DNA of 64,000 nt from Oasisia sp. SBJ-2009 (lineage: Eukaryota; Annelida; Polychaeta; Sabellida; Siboglinidae): the NCBI GenBank assembly GCA_964017155.1, contig OZ024856.1, forward strand, positions 1,117,701 to 1,181,700, in the 5' to 3' direction. A program made the position numbers and the translations under genes. Below, one piece after another: positions 80-63,173 of the stretch. Within the stretch, counting starts at the first letter, position 1. Each line of letters starts with the position of its first letter. The notes below the pieces were generated by a model. It was not told the origin of the DNA. It made no database searches and saw nothing but the letters and a program-made list of their open reading frames with translations.

Positions 80-3000
80 CTGGGCAGGGAGATGGGGCAT
101 GTATCATCCTCACATGTACGTAATAGAGGAGTCACATTACATGAAACTATCAATGCATTGCACAGTCAATGATTGTTTTGATAATACACAGTAAAGTAAG
201 TCGATAAATAAGTCACATTGAAACAAATATTCATAAAACATTTTTTTAATTTATTCATTATGTAAGTTCACTGAATTAGTGGCCTAACATCAGTAATTTC
301 AAATCAATAGTAGCAACATCATCCACTATTTCACCATTTTAGGAAACTAGTGTATGGCACAACATATCTATTAATTATATTTTGGGATTGCATTTCATGG
401 GAACTTCCTGTTTGATAATACTAATGCAATAGCTAGGACACTATTGCAATAATATTGTATCCCAATATAGAAAGTATTCAGACCTTTAGTCAATGGGCTA
501 AGGCTCGAAAAAATTCACAAAGTTATGTTTTTTGATATATAAAATATTGGAAGAAAATATTTTTATATGATAGCTTCTGAGCCATCTGATATATTTTGTT
601 TTCTCAACATAAAAACTATTCTAACCTATCAACTGCCTGGAAGTCCATTTACACTGCAACACTTAGCACTGGCTGCTGTGGTGTGTCACCGCAACCACAA
701 CATGCACATGACTGCACATGACTACACATGACTGCACATGACTGCACATGACTGCACATGACCCACTGAAAAGGTATACTGGTAAACTAAGATAAAAAGA
801 GGCAAACGAACGTAGTAAAATTGCAAATTGACTGGGGATGAGATGCATTTACACTGCTATAAAGTTGGCTTATTAATCCATGCACATAACTTTGTTACTA
901 CTGATAAAGCATGTCAGTATAGTTGTGTACCTTAATTATGTTTGCCCAGGTGTTTATGACTATGTTTGAGTTGAACTGCCTTGTGACATACACTGGGGGG
1001 TTTGACGTGACACAGACACACAAAGAACAGAACTGACTTGTGACATACACTGGGGGGTTTGACATGACACAGACACACAAAGAACAGAACGGACTTGTGA
1101 CATACACTGGGGGGTTTGATGTGACACACACACAAAGAACAGAACTGACTTGTGACATACACTGGGGGTTTGACGTGACACACACACAAAGAACAGAACT
1201 GACTTGTGACATACACTGGGGGTTTGACTTGACACAGACACACAAAGAACAGAACTGACTTGTGACATACACTGGGGGGTTTGACTTGACACAGACACAC
1301 AAAGAACAGAACTGACTTGTGACATACACTGGGGGGTTTGACATGACACAGACACACAAAGACCAGAACGGACTTGTGACATACACTGGGGGGTTTGACT
1401 TGACACAGACACAAAGAACAGAACTGACTTGTGACATACACTGGGGGGTTTGACTTGACACAGACACACAAAGAACAGAACTGACTTGTGACATACACTG
1501 GGGGGTTTGACGTGACACAAACACAAAGAACAGTACTGACTTGTGACATACACTGGGGGGTTTACATGACACAGACACACAAACAACAGAACTGACTTGT
1601 GACATACACTGGGGGGTTTGACTTGACACAGACACACAAAGAACAGAACTGACTTGTGACATACACTGGGGGGTTTGACGTGACACAGACACAAAGAACA
1701 GTACTGACTTGTGACATACACTGGGGGGTTTACGTGACACAGACACACAAACAACAGAACTGACTTGTGACATACACTGGGGGGTTTGACTTGACACAGA
1801 CACACAAAGAACAGAACTGACTTGTGACATACACTGGGGGGTTTGACGTGACACAGACACAAAGAACAGTACTGACTTGTGACATACACTGGGGGGTTTG
1901 ACATGACACAGACACACAAAGAACAGAACTGACTTGTGACATACACTGGGGGGTTTGACTTGACCCAGACACACAAAGAACAGAACTGACTTGTGACATA
2001 CACTGGGGGGTTTGACATGACACAGACACACAAAGAACAGTACTGACTTGTGACATACACTGGGGGGTTTACGTGACACAGACACACAAACAACAGAACT
2101 GACTTGTGACATACACTGGGGGGTTTACGTGACACAGACACACAAAGAACAGTACTGACTTGTGACATACACTGGGGGGTTTGACTTGACACAGACACAC
2201 AAACAACAGAACTGACTTGTGACATACACTGGGGGGTTTGACTTGACCCAGACACACAAAGAACAGAACTGACTTGTGACATACACTGGGGGGTTTGACT
2301 TGACCCAGACACACAAAGAACAGAACTGACTTGTTGCTGGCAGAGTCACTGTCCACCTCGGTTGTGTTGTCCCGAAGGTTCAGCTTTGGGGTGGCCTTCC
2401 TCAGCCTCAGTGCTGACCTCTTGTGGTAGCGACCGTGGGAAGTAGACATGTCTGAGACGGAGGCAAGGAGGAAGGTGGTCAGTCTCTAGTCTCAGAGACC
2501 TCAAATGTGTCAGTGATCTACATTTCTACCAGTCATATCTCATACAAACCTGTTGATAAATAGCCATCCACCATTCAGCTGTGAATATTTTTACATATGC
2601 AACTATCACAGAAAACATATGCATCCTTTTTTAATCTCTTCCTTCAAAATTTGTTCAAACATCTGGTACAACTTCAGGAAACCATCTTCTGAATAAGTGG
2701 TATATGTTGACCCAGTATGTAGTGTCAGTATGAGCATTTTACTAAGTAATTTCAGTGCAAAGGGATTATTTCAACGAAGGTTTACTTGGTGTTTACCTGT
2801 TGTTTCCCCTGTCGAGCCTTTGTAGTCCTGTGACGGGTCAAAGCTGACCTCCTCCTTCATCTTGACCGGGATCTTGGACGGTTTACCATCCTGTCTACAC
2901 ATGCAGGTGACATTTAGTTATGGTGGTGTAGATGCCTACACAAACAGGTGACATTTAGTTATGGTGGTGTAGATGCCTGCACATGCCAGTGACATTTAGT

Positions 3001-63173: not shown

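What the first reader, a model, noticed from the sequence alone, without database searches (positions are those of the whole stretch)
970..62957. Minisatellites are seeded on exon-intron junctions in both large genes
Of the junctions read in RGS22 and DNAH14, six lie inside a tandem array whose unit contains the splice site itself (2331 donor, 2894 acceptor, 9090 acceptor, 39922 acceptor, 54026 donor, 58023 acceptor). Six more have an array starting within about 25 nt (8906, 37225, 52889, 54891, 59026, 62958). Random placement in introns of this size would rarely give this. Both donors and acceptors are affected. I recall boundary-spanning intronic minisatellites ('mirages') described in amphioxus; the density here and the presence at both intron ends go beyond what I remember. 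Possible causes: replication slippage or break repair at the junction, or R-loops at splice sites.
Basis: partly seen in the sequence, partly recalled or inferred. Interest (0 to 1): 0.88.

Follow-up and report, generated by a model that had tools for sequence, protein, structure and literature searches.

The report
Splice-junction minisatellites in a tubeworm genome
In what is likely a deep-sea tubeworm, short DNA stretches straddling predicted exon-intron borders are repeated in tandem, up to about 90 times, inside the neighbouring intron, a pattern previously reported in amphioxus; it probably arises because such copies can multiply there without harming the gene.

Summary
The window is likely a vestimentiferan tubeworm, not amphioxus. 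Homology-based models confirm RGS22, a DNAH14-like dynein and all twelve named junctions, ten also by an automatic caller. Seven window arrays touch or enter an exon, four with 8-25 nt of coding sequence. Array-covered exon residues are 65% identical to annelid and mollusc relatives, so the border is older than the array. In 94 introns (48 of these genes, 46 of eight other dynein loci) a first array edge is met 5.85 times more often at -31..+10 nt from a junction than 51-500 nt inside (29 vs 36, p 7e-11); three disjoint subsets each exceed 4. Array density rises steeply with GC and exon borders are GC-rich; stratifying cuts the excess to 2.1 (1.16-3.45). Duplications under 2.5 copies are not enriched at junctions (2 of 46), arrays of 20 or more copies are (12 of 24). 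Junctions thus seem to favour growth or survival, not seeding. Such 'mirages', at both intron ends, are known from amphioxus; the phylum and the density are new.

The parts
973..2334 (-). 57-bp minisatellite, 24 copies, running from the RGS22 donor at 2331 into the intron; about 4 nt of exon; 23 of 23 matched copies keep the GT
   Evidence: TRF; gap -4; copies
2895..3230 (-). 41-bp minisatellite, 8 copies, ending exactly at the AG of the RGS22 acceptor at 2894; 7 of 7 matched copies keep AG
8507..8887 (-). 13-bp array, 29 copies, starting 18 nt inside the intron from the RGS22 donor at 8906
9073..9449 (-). 54-bp mirage, 7 copies, over the RGS22 acceptor at 9090; 18 nt of exon (VFPQAL) in the unit; 6 of 6 matched copies keep AG
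37278..37675 (-). 51-bp array, 7.8 copies, 52 nt from the dynein acceptor at 37225
39059..39096 (-).
39915..40619 (-). 19-bp mirage, 37 copies, over the dynein acceptor at 39922; 8 nt of exon; 25 of 36 matched copies keep AG
50864..52888 (-). 53-bp array, 38 copies, starting exactly at the GT of the dynein donor at 52889; 38 of 38 matched copies keep GT
53571..54046 (-). 43-bp mirage, 11 copies, over the dynein donor at 54026; 21 nt of exon (FIFILSP) in the unit; 10 of 10 matched copies keep GT; a whole-assembly DNA search returned only this array
54898..55444 (-). 19-bp array, 29 copies, 6 nt from the dynein acceptor at 54891 (border from the manual model)
56011..56176 (-). 24/25-bp array about 19 nt inside the dynein donor at 56196; the Ridgeia protein model reads past the same donor into similar repeats
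57999..58690 (-). 43-bp mirage, 16 copies, over the dynein acceptor at 58023; 25 nt of exon (HILDDHVL) in the unit; 15 of 15 matched copies keep AG
59060..59808 (-). 19-bp array, 39 copies, 33 nt from the dynein acceptor at 59026
62650..62954 (-). GT-rich microsatellite 3 nt from the dynein donor at 62958 (the donor reads GTATGTGTGTG)
35402..63173 (-). DNAH14-like dynein heavy chain, 19 modelled exons (63173-62958 ... 35559-35402), open frame of 1238 codons; gene continues in both directions
1..11187 (-). RGS22: an exon from about 11187 to 11098, then 9090-8906, 5511-5234, 4658-4535, 2894-2797, 2451-2331, 79-1 and on below the window

Best explanation
Thirteen of the 63 intronic tandem arrays in these two genes repeat 8-31 nt of a predicted exon edge together with its splice site, likely because chance tandem duplications that straddle a border persist and grow there while selection holds the outermost copy. 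Step by step: (1) shown: the units contain exon edge plus adjacent intron, and most of the covered residues are conserved in distant relatives, from which it follows that the border is older than the array; (2) supported by one genome-wide search and by a comparison of 69 units: arrays are mostly locus-specific, hence likely born in place; (3) shown: arrays are far denser in GC-rich intron sequence, and exon edges are the GC-rich end of the intron; (4) shown: enrichment at junctions is absent among duplications under 2.5 copies and strongest among high-copy arrays; (5) inferred: slippage or unequal exchange amplifies the copies into the intron, where growth is nearly neutral, while growth into the exon is removed by selection; (6) inferred: the exon-side copy cannot be lost without harming the protein, so these arrays outlive interior ones; (7) predicted, untested: the spliceosome keeps using the exon-proximal site (exon definition) in spite of the decoys.
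For: Exon residues inside 12 arrays with non-siboglinid references are 118/181 (65%) identical to Capitella, Mytilus, Elysia and Owenia. Rate of meeting a first array edge at -31..+10 nt vs 51-500 nt: 29/7341 vs 36/53342, ratio 5.85, p 7e-11; disjoint subsets 4.55 (window), 4.98 (same genes outside it), 7.43 (eight other dynein loci), each p at most 0.0013; interior rate flat out to 2 kb. Zone fraction by copy number 2/46, 6/40, 5/14, 6/16, 12/24; trend p 1.2e-6, or 0.0029 without the lowest class; copy effect kept with GC and period in the model, p 0.001. GC dependence inside introns from 0.13/kb below 35% GC to 4.3/kb above 58%. One unit was found only in its own array; the strongest matches among 69 units are within single introns. 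458 of 493 matched copies in the 20 touching arrays keep AG or GT (summed; over all 29 arrays of that of 575).
Against: No gradient of identity from the exon side to the far end (0.932 vs 0.919, p 0.72, 22 arrays), so re-copying from a pinned exon copy is not seen. The GC-stratified excess is only 2.08 (1.16-3.45), and unit GC and window GC are not the same measure. In the eight other loci alone the growth-aware null is not rejected: 8 vs 4.6 within 10 nt (p 0.058), 4 vs 3.4 touching (p 0.44), 8 vs 6.4 within 25 nt (p 0.28). Low-copy rows are mostly AT-rich (mean GC 0.29) and partly chance, so they are an imperfect stand-in for young seeds; among arrays of 40-56% GC the zone counts are 0/10, 5/14, 4/10, 5/11, 9/14. 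Conservation is poor for the array-covered residues at -8094 and partial at 90764 and 90597. Exon borders rest on homology, not RNA, and all loci but one are dyneins.
Confidence: 0.5

Rival explanations
1. GC content alone: arrays form and grow wherever intron DNA is GC-rich, and exon borders are merely the GC-rich edge; the splice site itself plays no part.
For: GC alone predicts a ratio of 3.48 (2.40-4.67) against 5.85 observed; zone and interior units have the same mean GC, 0.464 and 0.466.
Against: GC-stratified ratio stays above 1 (2.08, 1.16-3.45; 0.5% of bootstraps at or below 1); the peak is narrow, -31..+10, falling to 1.0-1.9/kb at 11-50 nt; in a joint model copy number matters (p 0.001) and GC does not (p 0.28).
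Confidence: 0.27
2. Mutational hotspot: something about splice sites (R-loops, nucleosome edges, breaks, a slippery polypyrimidine tract) makes tandem duplications start there.
For: Sharp peak at the junction and at both intron ends: arrays within 10 nt at 11 donors and 18 acceptors of 94 introns.
Against: Duplications under 2.5 copies show no junction excess, 2 of 46 (0 of 18 with units of 15 nt or more), against 28 of 78 expanded arrays in the same call, Fisher p 3e-5. The last 30 nt of introns with mirage acceptors have much the same composition as others.
Confidence: 0.14
3. The arrays are kept because many splice-site copies serve splicing (recursive or dual-specific sites, or alternative exon ends).
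For: 458 of 493 matched copies in touching arrays keep AG or GT; dual-specific sites in tandem repeats are known from human UBC (PMC10809524, abstract and passages).
Against: AG|GT acceptors are not enriched, 5/13 vs 21/81, p 0.34, nor AG|GT donors, 3/7 vs 57/87, p 0.25; only 4 of 20 periods are multiples of three; intact copies are also what recent copying at high identity gives; 47 of 94 introns have no minisatellite.
Confidence: 0.05
4. Chance: introns are so full of arrays that some must sit at junctions.
For: Arrays cover 47% of intron bases here and 27% in the eight other loci; allowing for array growth the excess within 10 nt falls from 29 vs 4.1 to 29 vs 12.0, and in the eight other loci alone it is not significant.
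Against: Growth-aware p 9.7e-8 over all 77 arrays; the edge-rate test, which growth does not affect, p 7e-11 overall and 1.7e-4 in the eight other loci.
Confidence: 0.03
5. The splice sites were recruited from older arrays (array first, border second).
For: Units carry functional-looking sites.
Against: Array-covered exon residues are 65% identical to distant relatives, so most of these coding borders are older than the arrays.
Confidence: 0.01

Closest known systems
Amphioxus 'mirages' (Adh3, globin, TnC, PGBD5 genes; PMC3087553, PMC3902484)
   Different: Likely a siboglinid annelid, not a cephalochordate; 20 touching arrays in 94 introns against examples in single genes; up to 91 copies; density, GC and copy-number dependence measured. 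Splicing was checked by RT-PCR there, not here.
Dual-specific AGGT splice sites in tandem repeats (human UBC; PMC10809524)
   Same: Splice sites inside tandem units in a gene.
   Different: There intron length is a multiple of the unit and AGGT serves both ends (passages); here only 3 of 94 introns have arrays within 10 nt of both ends and AG|GT is not enriched.
Intron gain by tandem duplication of proto-splice sites (Rogers model as cited in PMC3087553)
   Same: Tandem duplication of sequence holding splice signals.
   Different: Here the array lengthens an existing intron beside a conserved exon border; no new intron was looked for or seen.

Membership tests
Amphioxus-type mirage | Tandem repeat whose unit spans an exon-intron boundary | tested here: met
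   17 of 188 junctions have an array entering the exon by 5 nt or more: 12 acceptors, 5 donors; 4 in the window by 8-25 nt.
Amphioxus-type mirage | Exonic part of the unit is a copy of the authentic exon | tested here: met
   Conserved coding residues, 118/181 identical to non-siboglinid references over 12 arrays; weak at -8094.
Amphioxus-type mirage | Many repeats keep AG/GT splice signals | tested here: met
   458 of 493 matched copies in 20 touching arrays (summed).
Amphioxus-type mirage | Both 5' and 3' boundaries affected | tested here: met
   11 donors and 18 acceptors of 94 introns with an array within 10 nt.
Amphioxus-type mirage | Regular mRNA splicing is not disturbed | not testable with these tools
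   No RNA data held.
Amphioxus-type mirage | Length instability between haplotypes | tested here: inconclusive
   Only one assembly; the Ridgeia protein model suggests more copies of one orthologous array.
Introns built on dual-specific AGGT tandem repeats | AGGT sites at acceptor and donor inside one array | tested here: not met
   AG|GT acceptors 5/13 vs 21/81, p 0.34; 3 of 94 introns with arrays within 10 nt of both ends.
Dispersed repeat or transposon-borne satellite inserting at junctions | Same unit at many loci | tested here: not met
   One unit returned only its own array from the assembly (a second query did not complete). Among 69 local units 13 of 2346 pairs score above 0.6 against 4 in a shuffled control; the strongest are within one intron, five involve short units in different introns and score 0.67-0.81 (control top 0.71).

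The most novel reading that the evidence does not exclude
In siboglinid worms exon-intron borders act as growth points of introns: arrays whose unit carries a splice site amplify or survive better than any other array, so that about a quarter of intron length in these two genes (19.2 of 79.7 kb, 16 touching arrays summed) is multiplied border sequence, and the spliceosome routinely ignores up to about 90 intact decoy sites in one intron.
Probability: 0.35. Interest if true: 0.75.

Novelty: new member of a known kind. Interest (0 to 1): 0.6.

Why it matters
A curiosity of a few amphioxus genes turns up at high density in a distant phylum, with numbers that begin to separate where such arrays start from where they grow. 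It links intron length evolution to exon borders, and it offers natural introns with dozens of intact decoy splice sites in which exon definition can be tested directly.

Tried and rejected
Rejected or not supported: amphioxus origin; dispersed satellite; dual-specific or frame-preserving arrays; array-first origin; an exon-to-far-end identity gradient; plain uniform placement as a sufficient null, replaced by growth-aware and edge-rate tests. A shared motif was looked for: GTGACA, ACTCAC and others are over-represented in units against single-copy intron, but units are also richer in GC, and no further use was made of it. G-quadruplexes as a cause: of PMC9065059 only the abstract and section list were seen; one heading says that the enrichment at splice sites does not extend beyond vertebrates; not tested here.

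Rows dropped before counting: introns of the two genes with uncertain borders or withheld bases (79044/72478, 32603/32048, -20053/-21108, -27772/-33738 in window-relative coordinates); for the eight loci, junction candidates under score 60 and all but the best-voted of overlapping candidates (46 introns kept); arrays of fewer than 2.5 copies from the main tests, and of period under 7 except where stated. The copy-number classes use a lower TRF threshold (34) than the main tests (50). Depending on how overlapping TRF rows are merged, searches count 28 zone arrays and searches count 29. If the acceptor at 54891 were really at 54852, one zone event would move to the shoulder.

Literature searches. 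'Vestimentiferan' with 'minisatellite' gave no paper; the mirage papers found were the two amphioxus ones. Of the Ridgeia genome paper (PMC9921365) 12 of 17 passages on tandem repeats, introns and genome size were seen; none of them speaks of arrays at splice junctions.

Full report
What the window is. The window is C3:1117701-1181700 of a 764-Mb, 33-contig assembly. Its dynein best matches a Ridgeia piscesae protein (93% identity over 41% of the query); its RGS22 best matches Lamellibrachia satsuma (84%) and then Ridgeia (90% over a shorter stretch). Ridgeia is a siboglinid annelid. So the source is most likely a vestimentiferan tubeworm; no call names the species. Both genes lie on the minus strand. 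The dynein is called DNAH14-like because 'dynein heavy chain 14' records are among its vertebrate matches; in the PDB, DNAH6 scores best.

Exon borders. Aligning open frames to solved dyneins and choosing GT-AG sites that keep phase gave 19 dynein exons with 1238 codons and no stop. Six RGS22 exons were built likewise. The Ridgeia protein, a separate gene prediction, shows the same join at 10 of the 11 dynein borders it covers, the exception being after the donor at 56196, where it reads on into the intron.

The arrays. Tandem Repeats Finder puts arrays into the exon at 58023 (25 nt), 54026 (21), 9090 (18), 39922 (8) and 2331 (4), and exactly up to the border at 2894 and 52889. Outside the window, in the same genes, arrays enter the exon by 31 nt (90597), 28 (70461, 91 copies), 27 (82890, 39 copies), 16 (-8094), 15 (-15712, 91 copies), 13 (95541), 12 (90764), 10 (-27574) and 8 (91547) in window-relative coordinates. 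For 12 of the 13 arrays that cover 8 nt or more a reference outside the siboglinids was available: covered residues are 118/181 identical to Capitella, Mytilus, Elysia and Owenia proteins, poorly at -8094. So most of these coding borders are older than the arrays. Matched copies keep the splice dinucleotide in 458 of 493 cases in the 20 touching arrays (summed; 459 of 575 over all 29 arrays within 10 nt).

Is it more than chance? In 48 introns of the two genes (79.7 kb), 63 arrays of 2.5 or more copies cover 47% of the bases. Under uniform placement in each intron, 16 of 54 minisatellites touch or enter an exon against 1.5 expected. Because arrays grow, that null flatters the effect: with pre-growth introns and seeds allowed up to 31 nt into the exon it is 16 against 5.9, p 9.6e-6. 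Eight further dynein loci, 10 kb each, gave 46 introns and 23 minisatellites, 8 within 10 nt of a junction: 1.15 expected simply (p 4.6e-6), 4.6 expected growth-aware (p 0.058; touching 4 vs 3.4, p 0.44; within 25 nt 8 vs 6.4, p 0.28). The cleanest test counts how often the first array edge is met per base of flank, which growth does not change: -31..+10 nt 29/7341, 51-500 nt 36/53342, ratio 5.85, p 7e-11. Subsets give 4.55 (p 0.0013, window), 4.98 (p 1.1e-4, same genes outside) and 7.43 (p 1.7e-4, other loci), and the interior rate is flat out to 2 kb. The shoulder at 11-50 nt is 2.2-fold, p 0.04. These loci are dyneins plus one other gene, not a random gene sample.

What drives it? First, GC. 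Array density inside introns rises from 0.13/kb below 35% GC to 4.3/kb above 58%. Junction windows are 51% GC, single-copy intron 35%. GC alone predicts a ratio of 3.5 (2.4-4.7); stratified by GC the excess is 2.08 (1.16-3.45) against 5.24 crude. In the two highest GC strata the junction rate is below the interior rate (1.57 vs 2.55 and 0.63 vs 4.30 per kb). Second, copy number. The share of arrays within 10 nt of a junction is 2 of 46 below 2.5 copies, then 6/40, 5/14, 6/16 and 12/24 at 20 or more; trend p 1.2e-6, or 0.0029 without the lowest class. Copy number stays significant with GC and period in one model (p 0.001; GC p 0.28). Junction arrays are longer (median 579 vs 109 nt) with longer units (41 vs 21) and similar internal identity (93 vs 90.5%, p 0.24). 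So the junction seems to matter after duplication, in growth or survival.

What was looked for and not found. No identity gradient away from the exon. No excess of AG|GT acceptors and no preference for periods divisible by three. Units are mostly not shared between introns: of 2346 pairs, 13 score above 0.6 against 4 in a shuffled control, the strongest within one intron, five between short units of different introns. One unit returned only its own array from the assembly.

Mechanism. I favour: tandem duplications arise in place; GC-rich sequence lets them grow; at an exon border growth can only spread into the intron, and the exon-side copy is held by selection on splice site and codons, so the array is hard to lose. 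The last two steps are inferred. How the spliceosome ignores the decoys is untested; choice of the exon-proximal site by exon definition is the obvious proposal.

Sister species. The Ridgeia protein model runs past the donor at 56196 into repeats like those of the array at 56011-56176, apparently with more copies. This points to an orthologous array with changed length, seen only through a protein.

Known kind. Ebner and colleagues (PMC3087553, passages) describe minisatellite-like duplications of intron-exon boundaries in amphioxus globins, state that both boundaries can be affected, and cite Adh3; PMC3902484 (one passage) adds PGBD5 and TnC. By the features tested these arrays are mirages. 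Undisturbed splicing could not be tested and length instability was inconclusive. New here are the likely phylum, the density and the dependence on GC and copy number. My searches found no report in vestimentiferans, but most subscription papers are not in the library.

Noticed in passing
46722-48554 (+): A 611-residue open frame with RING finger and NHL-repeat matches (TRIM-like) lies antisense inside the 9.3-kb dynein intron between 50479 and 41219.
   Followed up: no
43259-44961 (-) and about 22600-26300 (-): Open frames that look like fragments of retroelement polymerase genes, judged by eye from translations; the first lies in the same dynein intron. The name is recalled; no family search was made.
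   Followed up: no
18118-19758 and 23776-23902: Two arrays outside the modelled exons share a 17-bp unit type, by eye, unlike most intron arrays.
   Followed up: no
array units of the 94 introns: GTGACA, ACTCAC and related words are over-represented in unit consensus against single-copy intron (GTGACA 15 of 2787 vs 47 of 67700 words).
   Followed up: partly
L025, introns 1438-4887 and 6867-8249 (minus-strand coordinates of the locus): One intron holds two separated blocks of the same 34-bp unit, one of them at the donor; the other has two unrelated 30-bp arrays, one at each end.
   Followed up: partly
about 44-96 kb below window start (L018-L023): Short arrays of one 24/25-bp unit family recur many times in the flanking region.
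   Followed up: no
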